This document shows positions 1 to 32,372 of a stretch of 64,000 nt of DNA, in pieces; position 1 is the first letter of the stretch; every line of letters begins with the position of its first letter. Both the position numbers and the translations under genes were made by a program. The notes below the pieces were generated by a model, which was not told where the DNA came from, ran no database searches, and saw only the letters and a program-made list of their open reading frames with translations. The stretch comes from Desulfuromonadales bacterium (lineage in GTDB: Bacteria > Desulfobacterota > Desulfuromonadia > Desulfuromonadales > JACZKF01): positions 1 to 64,000 of the forward strand of contig JARFUG010000008.1 of the NCBI GenBank assembly GCA_029289095.1, read 5' to 3'.

Positions 1-136
1 GCGATCCCAACCAGGGGCTCGCGGGCTTTTGCATTGACATGCCGGATTAGAAAAGTATATTGTGACCGCATTAAACTCCTTGGGGAAGGGCAGGGGGGAT
101 GCTTTTTTCACGGGCAGAGTTGAAAAGACCGATAAG

Positions 137-175
137 AAGCCGCCGGGGCCGTTGCAGAACGGTCCGGCGGCTTTT
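137..175 (+). terminator. Rho-independent terminator-like hairpin
   Basis: gccgccggggccg-ttgcagaa-cggtccggcggc followed by tttt. Confidence 0.7.
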
Positions 176-206
176 GTGTTCTTGGGGTTCCGAAGCCGAG
201 TGCGTC

Positions 207-299
207 ATTTTGCCCCCGAAAATCGCATTTTAAGCCATTTTTTAGGGCCAGAATGTGGAGAATTCAATGTTGAATCAGGTAGTTGGCTTGGTCCGACCC
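207..299 (+). repeat. ~93-bp short element copy A (attttgcccccgaaaatcg ... ttggtccgaccc)
   Basis: Both ends match copies B and C; the distance between end motifs is 81 nt, as in B. Confidence 0.55.
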
Positions 300-653: not shown

Positions 654-720
654 GGGCGCTAAAATAGTTCAGCCGGTGTTCCCTACTTCGTCCGAATGGT
701 TTTTCTAAGCTCGTTAGCAC
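654..720 (+). other. Possible degenerate attC-like site preceding cassette 1 (R' GTTAGCAC at 713-720)
   Basis: GCTAA...TTAGC ends; the R' octamer GTTAGCAC is an exact reverse complement of GTGCTAAC at 1154-1161. Confidence 0.4.
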
Positions 721-734
721 ACAAAGAACTGCGC

Positions 735-1154
735 ATGCGGAAGAATCACGAAACCCTTGGGTTAAGAATGGAACTCGCTGGCCTGATCATCCTTTTTGTT
801 GCTACGTTCTGGCAGGCTGAGTTTTCTGGCTGGTGGGATAACGAATTGCCGGAATGGCAGTATTTAATCCAAGAGGGAGTGAATCTTGAGGTCCTCGGCG
901 TATTGGCGCAAATCTCGTCATTAACAGCAATAGAAGAGCCCGAAGAGCGGAAGCAGAAAGCATACGAAACCAGTACGCGAGCGAAGCAAGCTATTTCCAA
1001 CGCGATTGAAATGAGGGATGAACGATGTAAAGCACGTAAAGCCCAAGCTTCGTTGTTCTCCACAATCAGTTTAGTCCTCGCGCTTACTGGCGCATTCCTG
1101 CTGATACTCGGCAAGTACATATCTGTTCGAGCTGCTAGTACAAGTGACAAATAG
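735..1154 (+). CDS. Small two-TM hypothetical protein
   Basis: ORF with N-terminal (LAGLIILFVATFWQA) and C-terminal (LFSTISLVLALTGAFLLILG) hydrophobic helices; stop abuts attC-like R''. Confidence 0.55.
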   Translation: MRKNHETLGLRMELAGLIILFVATFWQAEFSGWWDNELPEWQYLIQEGVNLEVLGVLAQISSLTAIEEPEERKQKAYETSTRAKQAISNAIEMRDERCKARKAQASLFSTISLVLALTGAFLLILGKYISVRAASTSDK

Positions 1155-1217
1155 TGCTAACAAGGCTATCGCAGCGGATCGCAAAAACCCCGTGCTCGCT
1201 GAAGAGCAGCGTTATGC
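1154..1217 (+). other. attC-like recombination site 1
   Basis: GTGCTAACaaggctatcgCAGCG...CGCTGaagagcagcGTTATGC: R'' and R' boxes with an imperfect palindrome between two ORFs. Confidence 0.6.
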
Positions 1218-1228
1218 AGGAGAAACCA

Positions 1229-2698
1229 ATGAAGTATCCAGTAGAGGAAGTATTCCGAACGGAAGGGGTCCCCGAGTTCACCTTCGTGAAACCACCAAAC
1301 TACAACGAGATACTCGTCGACATACGGAATCCAGGCAAGCCCACGATCATTGAGGGCCAATCAGGCACTGGCAAGACAACCGTCGCGAAGAAGATCATCG
1401 AGCACGCCTTCCCGCACGGAGACTTCGGATACCTCTCTGCACGCACGGCCAGCGATATGGCACGCATCCTATCGATTGCCGACGGAACGCTTCAAGGTAA
1501 GTGGATAATCGATGATTTCCATAGGTTGGATTCTTCCGTGCAGGCCCGCATTGCCGATCTGGTGAAGGTTGCTGCCGAGAACTTTGACGCCTCCTTACAC
1601 CCAAAGTTGGTCCTCATCGGAATAAACAAGGTAGGAAGTGAACTCATCCTTCTCGTTCATGACATTGCCAAACGATGCGGCATACACAGGATACAGCCTG
1701 CAGACAAGGAAATCGCCCTTCGGATGATCAGCCGAGGAGAGGAGAAGCTGAACGTCCTTTTGGACGACAAGGACGCCATTTTCAACGAGACCAAGGGGGA
1801 CTACTGGCTGACGCAGTTGACGTGTCAGGCGATCTGCCTTAGCCACGACATCCTCGAGACCCAGGACTCCCAAAGAACACTCGCGTACCGACAAGATGAT
1901 GTCCGAGCTCGCATCGTCGCGAGACTCGACAACACGTACAGAGAACCAGTCAAGGAGTTTGCCCGCGGCAAGCGCTTCCGGCCCACGAACGACCCCTACT
2001 TCCGACTGCTTCGTTTGGTAGCGGCGCAGGGAAGTTCGATCGCAGATCTCAACGAGCTGGCAAACGCTCACCCCGACGTACGGGGAAGCATCAACAACAT
2101 CAAGGAGCGACGCATCACTATCGTATTGGAGTCGAAGCCCATCTGTGATCGGTTCTTCTACTACAATGCTGACACGAAGACATTCGCTATTGAGGACCCC
2201 GCATTCTTTTACTACTTGCAGCACCTCGACTGGGAGAGTATGCGAAAGGACTGTGGGTTCAGGAGCGATCCGCACACCTTTGATTGGGATTTTGCGATCT
2301 CGTTCGCCGGCGAAAATAGAGACCTTGCAAAGACGATCGTGGATCTGCTCGAAATTTTAGACTGCACCATCTTCTACGATCAGTACTACGAGGCGAATTA
2401 TCTCGGCACCGCTTGGTCTCAGCAGTTTAAGGAGATCTTCGGAACTAAGGCAAGGTATATTGTCTGTCTGCTCGACTTCCATCACGCAGAGAAGATTTGG
2501 CCGACGTTCGAGAGGGAGTGTTTCACGCCCCGAGTAGAGGATTCCGCTGTGATTCCAATCTATCTGGACGACACTCCTTTTGTAGGTATTCCCAAGGATC
2601 TAATAGGAATTGACTTCAAGGGATGCGATCCGAGCAACACTGACCTTGTGACAGACAAAATCGTCTACAAGCTCGAAGAGAAACTCAGGAGTGTATAA
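1229..2698 (+). CDS. P-loop NTPase with C-terminal TIR domain, candidate defence protein
   Basis: Walker A GQSGTGKTT, Walker B-like WIIDDFH, TIR-like DFAISFAGENRDLAKTIVDLL...FYDQY...WPTFERE; AGGAG 6 nt before ATG 1229. Confidence 0.8.
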   Translation: MKYPVEEVFRTEGVPEFTFVKPPNYNEILVDIRNPGKPTIIEGQSGTGKTTVAKKIIEHAFPHGDFGYLSARTASDMARILSIADGTLQGKWIIDDFHRLDSSVQARIADLVKVAAENFDASLHPKLVLIGINKVGSELILLVHDIAKRCGIHRIQPADKEIALRMISRGEEKLNVLLDDKDAIFNETKGDYWLTQLTCQAICLSHDILETQDSQRTLAYRQDDVRARIVARLDNTYREPVKEFARGKRFRPTNDPYFRLLRLVAAQGSSIADLNELANAHPDVRGSINNIKERRITIVLESKPICDRFFYYNADTKTFAIEDPAFFYYLQHLDWESMRKDCGFRSDPHTFDWDFAISFAGENRDLAKTIVDLLEILDCTIFYDQYYEANYLGTAWSQQFKEIFGTKARYIVCLLDFHHAEKIWPTFERECFTPRVEDSAVIPIYLDDTPFVGIPKDLIGIDFKGCDPSNTDLVTDKIVYKLEEKLRSV

Positions 2699-2750
2699 CA
2701 AGCCGGATGCACGCGACGGCTTTTCAGCAGCGTGTTCCGCAACGTTATGC
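2693..2750 (+). other. attC-like recombination site 2
   Basis: GTATAACaagcCGGAtgCACGC...GCGTGtTCCGcaacGTTATGC: imperfect palindrome with unpaired bases, R'' overlapping the stop codon of the NTPase-TIR gene. Confidence 0.7.
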
Positions 2751-2766
2751 TTGAAAGGGTGATCAA

Positions 2767-3867
2767 ATGGTCTCTGATGAATATGAATCGGGCGAGGAAC
2801 AGAAGTCCATAGACCTGAAAAAGCTTGCTCGAATCGAAAAGGAAAAGAAAGAGCTTCTTGCATCCCTCGCTGGTGGCAATTTCTCAACTCAAAAAGCGAA
2901 GGTCGCCGCGATTCTAAACCTTTTCCCGGATTCTCGTAACAGTGACATCAAATTGGCACTGAAGTATTGGGAGACATTTCAGCCCGACATCTACAATCCA
3001 TCGGGAATTCTTCCTAAAGACCTATTTAAGTTGGAGCGCCTTCACTACATCGTACGCGCACGGGCAAAAATACAAAACGAATACGGCCTATTTCAGGCTG
3101 ATGAGAAGATTAAACATCATCGGAAGAAACAAGAAGAAGTGATGCATGAATCGGTTCTCGAGGATGTCGCACCAAAAAGAGTAATTCATGTATTTGCCGA
3201 CGAGACAGGCAAAACTCACGATTTTGTGATTGTTGCCGCTGTTTGGGTACTTAGTGGTAGAGCAGTATTCAAGGTCACCCAGGCTATAAATGAATGGAAA
3301 GAGACTTCCGCATGGGCAGGTAGAGAGATCCATTTTGCAAAATTTGGAAAAATGGATTTCGATACGCTCAGGGACTATCTTGGCGTGATTCAACAGAATA
3401 GAGAGTTTCTTAGCTTTAAAGTAATCGCAGTGCAGAAATCAAGAACGAAACGAAAAATAGAAGAGGTTATAGAGAAGCTTCACGAGCATATGTTGGTCCG
3501 CGGTGCTGAACATGAAATTGAGCAGGGCAGAGTCGACTTGCCTAGGGAAATAGGAGTGACAATAGACGAGGAACAATCTCTTGACCCATTTATCCTTTCA
3601 GAAATGACGCGAAGAGTCGCTGCGGATTTCGCCCAGCATTATAAAGATCAATTACAAATTGAAAGTATACAAACTGTATCATCTAGGAGCAGCGCACTCG
3701 TTCAACTAGCAGATTTAGTTGCAGGTGCGGTGAATCGTCGTCTGAACCACGTCGGAGCCAAAAATTATAAAGACGAAATGGCTGACTGGATCGTGCACAC
3801 GCTTGACCTCGCTCTTGGGGAAGAAGGTGTGCCAGGACTTGATGTGTCAGCGCTTTTTCGAGTATAG
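2767..3867 (+). CDS. DUF3800 domain-containing protein
   Basis: IHVFADETGKTHDFVIVAAVWV and C-terminal VQLADLVAGAVNRR, typical of DUF3800. Confidence 0.75.
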   Translation: MVSDEYESGEEQKSIDLKKLARIEKEKKELLASLAGGNFSTQKAKVAAILNLFPDSRNSDIKLALKYWETFQPDIYNPSGILPKDLFKLERLHYIVRARAKIQNEYGLFQADEKIKHHRKKQEEVMHESVLEDVAPKRVIHVFADETGKTHDFVIVAAVWVLSGRAVFKVTQAINEWKETSAWAGREIHFAKFGKMDFDTLRDYLGVIQQNREFLSFKVIAVQKSRTKRKIEEVIEKLHEHMLVRGAEHEIEQGRVDLPREIGVTIDEEQSLDPFILSEMTRRVAADFAQHYKDQLQIESIQTVSSRSSALVQLADLVAGAVNRRLNHVGAKNYKDEMADWIVHTLDLALGEEGVPGLDVSALFRV

Positions 3868-3910
3868 GCATAACAAACCCATCCACTCGGGCGGAAGAAA
3901 GCCATTAAGA
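3868..3910 (+). other. attC-like half site (R'' GCATAAC present, R' not clear)
   Basis: GCATAAC immediately after the DUF3800 stop, exact complement of the GTTATGC at 2744-2750 that opens this cassette. Confidence 0.4.
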
Positions 3911-3919
3911 GGAGATTGA

Positions 3920-4654
3920 ATGGGATTCACACCTCAAATTAAAGAGGATGCACTGGTCGCATCAGGGCGGCATTGCTGCATCTGCCACAGATTTTGCGGA
4001 ACGAAAATAGAAGTTCACCATATCGTGACGAAAAGAGATGGGGGTGAAGATTCTTTTGAAAATGCTATCCCTCTTTGTTTCGACTGCCACGCTGACATGC
4101 GTTCATATGATCACAGCCACCCGAAGGGCTGCAAATACACTATTAAAGAGCTAAAAAGGCACAGAGATAACTGGTACCAGAAGGTGGCCGGGAATGTGGG
4201 AACGGCTAACCGCGAAGAGGTTGTTGAGACGGATAAGAAGGTATATCGAACGTTACTGAAATTTTTGCCGTGGAATGGGACCATACAATTTCTGAGAGAC
4301 AACAATTTTGCTGGTGCCTCATTTGAAAGAAGCGAAACGAAGGATTTGTCAAAATATTGGGAGCAATGCCAAAACCCTCTATTTGAATTTATCGACCCTG
4401 ATTTAGAGGGGTTGCGCGCCGATTTGACTGAAAAAATCAGAGTAATGAAAAAGGCAATTGCCCTAGAAACATTTCCTGCCCATATAAACGGTTGCAATTC
4501 GGTGCCGGCTGAATGGGAGTTTGAGCAACCAGAGCGGTTCCGCCGTGCTGTCGAGGCCCTCCATAGAAGTGCAGATGATGTTTGTGAAGCTTATGACTCC
4601 TTGGTAAGGACGGCCACACGCAAGCTGGGTATTTTACCAGATGATATGGCATAA
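3920..4654 (+). CDS. HNH endonuclease
   Basis: CCICHRFCGTKIEVHHIVTKRDGGEDSFENAIPLCFDCHADM HNH/zinc motif. Confidence 0.85.
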   Translation: MGFTPQIKEDALVASGRHCCICHRFCGTKIEVHHIVTKRDGGEDSFENAIPLCFDCHADMRSYDHSHPKGCKYTIKELKRHRDNWYQKVAGNVGTANREEVVETDKKVYRTLLKFLPWNGTIQFLRDNNFAGASFERSETKDLSKYWEQCQNPLFEFIDPDLEGLRADLTEKIRVMKKAIALETFPAHINGCNSVPAEWEFEQPERFRRAVEALHRSADDVCEAYDSLVRTATRKLGILPDDMA

Positions 4655-4733
4655 CCCTAATAACCAAAAGGGGACGGATTTATTTTCCGGGCAAGGATAA
4701 GAACTGATCGGGTTAGCCCCCCCCGCCCCCCCC

Positions 4734-4825
4734 GGGTCGGACCAACTCAAGTGGCTAGAACTAAAAGGAAATGTCCTAAAATCACCCCTTGAGACAGGCT
4801 GTAGGCCGATTTTTGGGGGTAAAAT
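4734..4825 (-). repeat. ~92-bp short element copy C, inverted relative to A and B
   Basis: Reverse complement attttacccccaaaaatcgg...ttggtccgaccc; 17/19 match to copy A at the outer end, exact 12-mer at the inner end. Confidence 0.6.
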
Positions 4826-4854
4826 CAGCCACCCCAGGGACAAACATTTTGGCA

Positions 4855-5615: not shown

Positions 5616-5725
5616 TTATTTCCCTCGCCGCTGAAGCGCCTCGAAGCTCAGGAGTGAAACCACGGCCAGACTGAAGGGGAGCAGAAAGAAGATCCCCCGG
5701 TAGACCAGCAGGGCGCCGAACAGGG
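5616..5725 (-). repeat. Exact 110-bp duplicate of the 3' end of the 7656-8585 gene
   Basis: ttatttccctcgccgctgaag...gcgccgaacaggg identical to 7656-7765. Confidence 0.95.
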
Positions 5726-5780
5726 AAGAACTCCCGGTGTCAGGCTTGACATTCAGACATCCTGTCACTAATCTCCTCCC

Positions 5781-5863
5781 ATGCCCCGCTAACCTCGCCT
5801 CCATTACCCTGGTGCTGTCTACCACGTGATGCTTCGTGGCAACGCTGGCGATCCGATCTTTTC
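5781..5863 (+). pseudogene. Truncated REP-associated tyrosine (IS200-like) transposase N-terminus
   Basis: Translates MPR*PRLHYPGAVYHVMLRGNAGDPIF: the RAYT N-terminal signature with an in-frame TAA and loss of the rest. Confidence 0.75.
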
Positions 5864-7655: not shown

Positions 7656-8585
7656 TTATTTCCCTCGCCGCTGAAGCGCCTCGAAGCTCAGGAGTGAAAC
7701 CACGGCCAGACTGAAGGGGAGCAGAAAGAAGATCCCCCGGTAGACCAGCAGGGCGCCGAACAGGGCCGGCGCCGATAGTCCCGGGGTCAGCAGGAGAAAG
7801 ACGGATTCGAAGACGCCCAGGCCTCCCGGCACATGGCTGATGACGACGGCTATCTGCGCCAGGAAATAGATCTGCAGGAAGTGCGGAAGGGACAGGTCGA
7901 CCGTGGGGGGGAGCAGGACAAAGAGCACGCTGGCCGTGAGCATCCAGTCCAGTGAGCCGACCAGGACCTGCGCCAGTGCCTGGCGGAAAGTGGGTACGGG
8001 GAGCCGCCACCCCCACAGGCGCATGGGGTTGCGGCGCAGAAAGATCAGAAGAAGGTAGATTCCTACCGACACCAGTGCCAGAGCGCCGACCGGGCGCAGG
8101 AGGTGGAGGGGGAGTTGGGGCAGATCCGGCAGGGCAGCGGTGAAAAAGAGCAGAATGCTCCCACCCATGGTGGCCATGCCGAGGATGAAGGAGAGGGCGG
8201 CAAAAGCGATCAGCCGGACGATTTCCTCAGCCTTCAGTCCCCAGGAGGAATAAAACCGGTAGCGGACCGAGCCGCCGCTCAGCAGGGCAAAGCCGACATT
8301 GCGGCTGAAGGCGTAATTGGTAAAGGACGCCACAGTGATCCGCCCCAGGCGCAGGGGGCGACCAAGATAGCGCAGGCCGAGGTGATCGTGGAGGCTCAAG
8401 GCCAGGTAGCAGACGGCCGTCATCCCCACAGCCGCCAGGATCCGGGCCGTCGGAAATTCCCTTATCTGCTGAAGGATATCGCTGAACCGGTATTCCTCCA
8501 GCGTGCTGTGCAGCGACCACACGGCCAGGAGAAAGATCGCCAGGACCAGCAGGGGCGAGAATCGCTTCAGATCCTTGCGTTTCAT
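7656..8585 (-). CDS. Lysylphosphatidylglycerol synthase TM / UPF0104 (YbhN-like) family membrane protein
   Basis: Multi-TM; HVPGGLGVFESVFLLL and SLHDHLGLRYLGRPLRLGRI motifs. Confidence 0.8.
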   Translation of the reverse strand: MKRKDLKRFSPLLVLAIFLLAVWSLHSTLEEYRFSDILQQIREFPTARILAAVGMTAVCYLALSLHDHLGLRYLGRPLRLGRITVASFTNYAFSRNVGFALLSGGSVRYRFYSSWGLKAEEIVRLIAFAALSFILGMATMGGSILLFFTAALPDLPQLPLHLLRPVGALALVSVGIYLLLIFLRRNPMRLWGWRLPVPTFRQALAQVLVGSLDWMLTASVLFVLLPPTVDLSLPHFLQIYFLAQIAVVISHVPGGLGVFESVFLLLTPGLSAPALFGALLVYRGIFFLLPFSLAVVSLLSFEALQRRGK

Positions 8586-8670
8586 CCAGATTTGGACACC
8601 CTCCCGGTCGGTAGCTTCGCCGGGGCAAAGGGAGAGCATGGCGGCACCATCCCCCCAGTTTCCACGCCGA

Positions 8671-32117: not shown

Positions 32118-32372
32118 ACTGCAAAAGCGATGAAGAGGAGTAGTAGGGTCTCCTTCCTGTCCCAGAGAGCCGGCGGTCGCTGCAAGCCGGTACAGGAACG
32201 ATCCGAACTCGCCTCGGAGCTGTCCGGGTGAACGTCGTCTTCGGCGCTAGCCTGCACCGTGAGCCTGCGTAAAGGGAAAAACAAGGCCCGGCCATCCAAG
32301 GCGGGCGAATCAGGGTGGTACCGCGAAGCGCAAGCTCTCGCCCCTGTACGGGGCGGGGGTTTTTTTTTGCCG
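32118..32372 (+). ncRNA. T-box leader, leucine-type (specifier CTC at 32208-32210)
   Basis: AGAGAGCCGG-type stem I, gaaCTC specifier region, GTGAACG, conserved AGGGTGGTACCGCG (32312-32325), terminator cgcccctgtacggggcg-T9. Confidence 0.9.

What the first reader, a model, noticed from the sequence alone, without database searches (positions are those of the whole stretch)
654..4655. Integron-style cassette array (CALIN-like) with attC-like sites between putative defence genes
Four consecutive same-strand ORFs each end at or a few nt from an R''-type motif: GTGCTAAC 1154-1161, GTATAAC 2693-2699, GCATAAC 3868-3874, GCATAAC 4649-4655. The first two junctions are complete attC-like imperfect palindromes ending in GTTATGC (1154-1217, 2693-2750), with next-gene starts shortly after. 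The boundary logic fits integron cassettes. GTTAGCAC (713-720), which would open cassette 1, is an exact complement of its own R'' GTGCTAAC. GTTATGC (2744-2750), which opens cassette 3, is an exact complement of its R'' GCATAAC at 3868. For cassette 2 the match is 6/7. No integrase ORF is visible in the window. The genes look more AT-rich than the rest of the region. The third junction lacks a clear R', so the DUF3800-HNH boundary may be eroded.
Basis: partly seen in the sequence, partly recalled or inferred. Interest (0 to 1): 0.88.

Follow-up and report, generated by a model that had tools for sequence, protein, structure and literature searches.

The report
Decayed integron cassette array, defence-like genes
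At 0.7-4.7 kb the window holds a small, decayed stretch of integron gene cassettes (genes carried with their own recombination sites), one of which moved intact between distant bacterial groups; this is a known kind of mobile DNA in a new place.

Summary
A covariance model built only from attC sites of intI-linked arrays in same-order genomes, run unfiltered over all 64 kb, put its two best hits exactly on the two proposed sites (1155-1217, 20.5 bits; 2693-2750, 18.4 bits; next best 8.8). Junction 3 (3868-3894) is the best left half of an attC in the window, with its right half lost. The fourth motif (4649) is not an attC. The decisive test is cassette 2 (AAA-type ATPase plus C-terminal TIR). 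It is 89% identical in Saccharospirillum impatiens (Gammaproteobacteria). There DNA similarity begins at the R' box, ends inside the next attC, and the gene has its own, different flanking attC sites. The block has no integrase beside it, but the genome has one integron integrase with an internal stop on another contig, a truncated second copy, and another attC. Window 15-183 matches the leader of the truncated copy. This is a CALIN, a new member of a known kind. Two of the genes match candidate anti-phage families in PADLOC, but defence activity is inferred, not shown.

The parts
15..190 (+). Relic of the leader that precedes intI elsewhere in this genome; the intI gene itself is missing here
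   Evidence: 91% identical over 15-183 to the sequence directly before a truncated intI on C12
479..585 (+). REP/BIME-type repeat on the left flank
   Evidence: repeated in G041 and G042 next to copies of the right-flank repeat
713..720 (+). GTTAGCAC, presumed start of cassette 1 (core site G^TT)
   Evidence: exact complement of GTGCTAAC 1154-1161; no attC model hit ends here
735..1154 (+). Cassette 1 gene (in-frame ATG 735 preferred over 696), small protein of unknown function with hydrophobic stretches
   Evidence: no Pfam match above cut-off, no PADLOC match; no relative in the phylum sample or plasmids
1155..1217 (+). attC 1 (R'' TGCTAAC, R' GTTATGC)
   Evidence: best attC-model hit of the window, 20.5 and 21.2 bits; 83-84% identical to attC sites in two G113 arrays
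1226..2698 (+). Cassette 2 gene: P-loop ATPase with C-terminal TIR domain
   Evidence: TIR_2 E 3.6e-6, PDC-S59 E 2.4e-7; Walker and TIR residues invariant in five relatives; dN 0.061, dS 1.40 against Saccharospirillum
2693..2750 (+). attC 2 (R'' GTATAAC, R' GTTATGC, 5-base spacers, L'' one base longer than L')
   Evidence: second-best attC-model hit, 18.4 and 17.5 bits
2767..3867 (+). Cassette 3 gene: DUF3800 protein
   Evidence: DUF3800 E 1.8e-11, PDC-M04A E 2.9e-11
3868..3894 (+). Left half of an attC (R'', spacer, L''); right half lost
   Evidence: best of 127,946 positions for the attC left-arm matrix, 21.3 bits against 12.2 for the next
3920..4654 (+). HNH endonuclease-like gene, joined to the half attC; no attC of its own
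   Evidence: HNH E 3e-8; 4649 motif ranks 1024th as an attC left arm; an HNH relative lies between attC hits in G174
4734..4829 (-). REP/BIME-type repeat on the right flank, inverted relative to the left one

Best explanation
Positions 713 to about 3894 are two complete integron gene cassettes and one truncated one, each an ORF followed by an attC site, left without a working integrase beside them (a CALIN). By the established integron mechanism, a cassette is excised as a circle when the integron integrase recombines folded single-stranded attC sites, and is inserted so that it begins at the TT of G^TTATGC. Shown here: attC sites at two junctions, half an attC at the third, cassette-shaped sharing of cassette 2 with another phylum, and one integron integrase with an internal stop plus one truncated copy elsewhere in the genome. 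Inferred: that this array descends from an integron whose intI stood near window 190 and was lost, its place now filled by REP-type repeats; and that some cassettes serve anti-phage defence (the AAA-TIR protein sensing infection and depleting NAD).
For: attC models trained on other genomes hit exactly the two junctions first in 64 kb. Site 1 is a repeated unit in cassette arrays of G113, which has three intI genes. In Saccharospirillum cassette 2 is 89% identical, DNA similarity spans 1209-2721, and other attC sites flank it; in a Desulfopila MAG it spans 1212-2700. Half attC at 3868. Low G+C and R'' box at every stop. Integron integrase over the curated cut-off on C73 and another attC on C35. 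intI leader relic at 15-183.
Against: In the whole-genome searches site 1 reached only E 0.4-0.65 and site 2 was not listed. Single-strand folding is no better than shuffles, and the predicted minimum-energy fold of site 1 is not the attC shape. No intI or attI adjoins the array, and the upstream boundary at 713 is not a detectable attC. Published attC models could not be run. Defence activity is untested.
Confidence: 0.94

Rival explanations
1. A genomic or defence island assembled by recombination between the flanking REP/BIME repeats or by another mobile element; the inverted repeats between the genes are chance or are transcription terminators.
For: REP-type repeats flank the block in inverted orientation. 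The folds are no more stable than shuffles. No integrase adjoins.
Against: attC-model hits at exactly both junctions; cassette 2 shared with Saccharospirillum from core site to core site with different neighbours; site 1 repeated in real integron arrays.
Confidence: 0.04
2. The DUF3800 and HNH genes are one two-gene unit, and the R''-like box at 3868 is chance; the last cassette would then carry both genes.
For: Only 52 bases separate the genes, and the DUF3800 protein matches PDC-M04A, whose name suggests a multi-gene candidate.
Against: The 27-base left arm at 3868 is the best attC left arm in 64 kb. In the two annotated plasmid regions inspected (Cupriavidus, Bacillus cereus) no HNH gene is annotated beside DUF3800. 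An HNH relative lies between attC hits in G174.
Confidence: 0.08
3. The array is the far part of a complete, working integron that the assembly split, rather than a decayed CALIN.
For: The window starts at a contig end, and the genome is in 154 contigs with intI on a 2.4-kb contig.
Against: The left contig end overlaps C21, whose first genes are ordinary chromosomal ones. The intI leader relic at 15-183 is followed by repeats, not intI. The integrase found has an in-frame stop.
Confidence: 0.1

Closest known systems
[quoted passage not shown]
   Same: Two attC sites in one orientation, each after a promoterless-looking ORF, no integrase beside them; thought to be degraded integrons
   Different: Very small; the third attC is cut in half; an intI leader relic remains upstream
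Chromosomal cassette arrays of same-order genomes (G113, G107, G112)
   Same: attC consensus with R''/R', L''/L' and the extra L'' base; site 1 is 83-84% identical to G113 sites
   Different: Those genomes have intI near the arrays and more sites, scoring up to 91 bits; the window sites score 20.5 and 18.4
Integrons as stores of phage-defence genes (Darracq 2025, Getz 2025, Kieffer 2025; known here only as references in PMC12444791)
   Same: Cassettes with defence-like genes in an integron context
   Different: Here defence is inferred from homology only; the host is not one of those studied as far as I know
TIR-domain NADases of bacterial immunity (e.g. AbTIR, PDB 8g83)
   Same: TIR domain with the conserved glutamate at WPTFE
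   Different: TIR at the C-terminus, behind a P-loop ATPase module; activity not tested

Membership tests
Integron attC site | R'' and R' core boxes with conserved AAC...GTT | tested here: met
   1155-1161/1211-1217 and 2693-2699/2744-2750
Integron attC site | Conserved paired architecture recognised by a covariance model | tested here: met
   Top two hits in 64 kb with models made from other genomes; the E-values are rough
Integron attC site | Stable bottom-strand fold | tested here: inconclusive
   z-scores 0.06 and -0.63 against shuffles
Integron attC site | Recombination by an integron integrase at G^TT | not testable with these tools
   Needs an assay; natural break points agree
Integron gene cassette | Gene plus attC moves as a unit with core-site boundaries | tested here: met
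   Cassette 2 in Saccharospirillum 1209-2721 and Desulfopila 1212-2700; not shown for cassettes 1 and 3
Complete integron | intI and attI next to the array | tested here: not met
   No intI in the window; the only strong match is on C73 with an in-frame TGA
CALIN | At least two attC sites without integron integrase nearby | tested here: met
   Two full sites plus half a site; rule from PMC9024848; the published program was not run
Anti-phage defence genes | Match to a defence family model | tested here: inconclusive
   PDC-M04A (E 2.9e-11) and PDC-S59 (E 2.4e-7) for genes 3 and 2, both only candidate families; HNH only weakly like several nuclease families; gene 1 none

The most novel reading that the evidence does not exclude
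The AAA-ATPase plus C-terminal TIR protein of cassette 2 is an undescribed single-gene anti-phage system that spreads across phyla as an integron cassette (89% identity in a gammaproteobacterium, 82% in Chlorobiaceae), with NAD depletion as its output.
Probability: 0.4. Interest if true: 0.55.

Novelty: new member of a known kind. Interest (0 to 1): 0.38.

Why it matters
It is an independently tested case of a decayed integron array outside the well-studied Vibrio and Xanthomonas systems. It contains a TIR-ATPase cassette whose attC-to-attC sharing with another phylum can be seen base by base. It adds to recent reports that integrons store phage-defence genes, and gives a concrete single-gene candidate to test.

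Tried and rejected
Rfam has no match in the block. A strict RYYYAAC pattern over the genome found nothing because GTATAAC and GCATAAC do not fit it. A simple stem-scoring finder was too unspecific: 8 sites at 22 or more per strand in 58 kb of background. MAFFT alignment of short attC sites misaligned the extra L'' base, so no model was built from it. Whether the genome's IntI belongs with the integrons whose cassettes run in the same direction as intI was unresolved in a tree. No cassette-free equivalent of the site could be read from G026: its methyltransferase is 89% identical but the sequence upstream is unrelated. The AlphaFold model of cassette 2 was poor (mean pLDDT 57) and was not used for a fold search. 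No DUF3800 relative was found in phages.

Full report
Observation. Every one of the four block genes has an NNNTAAC box at its stop, against 1 of 45 other ORFs of at least 150 aa in the window, and the four genes are 9-17 points lower in G+C than the rest. The R'' of the first site is best read as TGCTAAC (1155-1161).

Are the junctions attC sites? No published attC model was available, so one was made. Thirty attC sites were taken from arrays near integron integrases in same-order genomes; none came from the window. Their R''/R' and L''/L' pairing is supported by covariation (12 of 19 pairs changed on both sides; score 0.324 vs 0.135 shuffled). The model run without filters over 64 kb, both strands, gave three hits: 1155-1217 (20.5 bits), 2693-2750 (18.4 bits) and an unrelated 8.8-bit hit. 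A second model from 65 sites gave the same order (21.2, 17.5, 9.0 bits). E-values are rough (short calibration), and at whole-genome scale the two sites alone are not significant, so position matters: both hits lie exactly at gene junctions proposed beforehand by a reader with no tools. Site 1 is in addition a repeated unit: 83-84% identical copies end cassettes in two G113 arrays, on a chromosome with three intI genes. Site 2 has 5-base spacers on both sides and an L'' arm one base longer than L', as in known attC sites (read from the sequence; the extra-base rule is established knowledge). Plain folding energies are unremarkable.

Junctions 3 and 4. A weight matrix of attC left arms scores 3868-3894 highest of 127,946 positions (21.3 bits, next 12.2), while 4649 ranks 1024th. 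The HNH gene may be a cassette by origin: a relative in G174 lies between model hits at 221-283 and 974-1037 of L101.

Cassette-wise movement. The cassette 2 protein is 89% identical in Saccharospirillum impatiens, 82% in a Chlorobiaceae MAG, 78% in a Desulfopila MAG, 60-64% in two betaproteobacterial MAGs and 49% in a Marinilabiliales MAG. Only a 29% relative appears in 395 other genomes sampled from the window's own phylum, which points to horizontal transfer. In Saccharospirillum DNA similarity runs from 1209 to 2721, that is from the R' box to inside the following attC, and the gene is flanked by other attC sites and other genes. In Desulfopila it runs from 1212 (TTATGC) to 2700 (just past R''). 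These are cassette boundaries. dN 0.061 and dS 1.40 against Saccharospirillum show purifying selection. Cassettes 1 and 3 have no relatives in the phylum sample.

Where is the integrase? The genome has one strong integron-integrase match (480 bits, cut-off 265) with an in-frame TGA, on the 2455-bp contig C73. A second, truncated copy lies on C12, and the 170 bases before it are 91% identical to window 15-183. C73 shares with them only the GGCGGCTTTTGT...GGGG segment before intI. Inference: an integron stood here; its intI was lost between about 190 and 713, a stretch now filled with REP-type repeats. The left end of the window is a contig end; C21 shares 55 bases with it and continues the sequence seen before the C12 copy. 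Another attC (GCCTAACAATTCATTCAAGCC...GCGTTATGC) follows a DUF6150 ORF on C35, so cassettes are scattered in this genome.

Function. Gene 2 is a P-loop ATPase (Walker A GQSGTGKT, Walker B-like DDFH) with a C-terminal TIR; the Walker A motif and the WPTFE glutamate are invariant among five relatives, and a profile search finds the TIR NAD hydrolase AbTIR (E 7e-4). The gene stands without a constant partner in several hosts, and a 52% relative on a Pantoea plasmid is followed by another TIR gene and a gene annotated as a CBASS phospholipase. Gene 3 is DUF3800 (PDC-M04A) and gene 4 HNH. Gene 1 is unknown. Defence is therefore plausible for two or three genes and unproven for all.

Placement. [quoted passage not shown] intI pseudogenes are common (PMC2426708), and defence cassettes in integrons were reported in 2025 (cited in PMC12444791). 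It is a new member of a known kind.

Noticed in passing
L081 5343-5402 (G000:C35:19342-19401): A well-scoring attC (30.3 bits) after a DUF6150 ORF on another contig of the same genome, ending shortly before a REP repeat and the contig end; by eye it resembles class 1 integron cassette sites.
   Followed up: partly
L080 2595-2940 (G000:C12): A truncated intI with its leader, followed by a small ORF ending at GCACTAAC; perhaps another decayed integron.
   Followed up: partly
L002 1-170 (C73, downstream of intI) and L081 3259-3412 (C35): Short repeats around TTTAGACAGACTG occur both after intI and just before the C35 cassette genes; they might be an attI-like region.
   Followed up: no
window 283-299, 567-583, 4734-4750: REP-type repeats (TTGGTCCGACCC) flank the array in inverted orientation; related pairs are repeated in G041 and G042.
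   Followed up: partly
window 5616-5725 and 7656-7765: A 110-base identical duplication of the 3' end of the minus-strand membrane-protein gene at 7656-8639; next to it, 5779-5861 looks like a fragment of a REP-associated transposase.
   Followed up: no
L091 4984 (Desulfopila MAG): Cassette 2 similarity starts at TTATGC, but the base before it is C rather than the G of G^TT, and no attC was detected upstream; perhaps insertion at a secondary site.
   Followed up: no
window 32121-32348: T-box leader above Rfam's gathering score (112 bits).
   Followed up: no
L012, L014, L016, L018, L024: In several same-order genomes attC sites lie downstream of intI on the same strand instead of diverging from it; these did not separate into one well-supported IntI clade including the window's genome.
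   Followed up: partly
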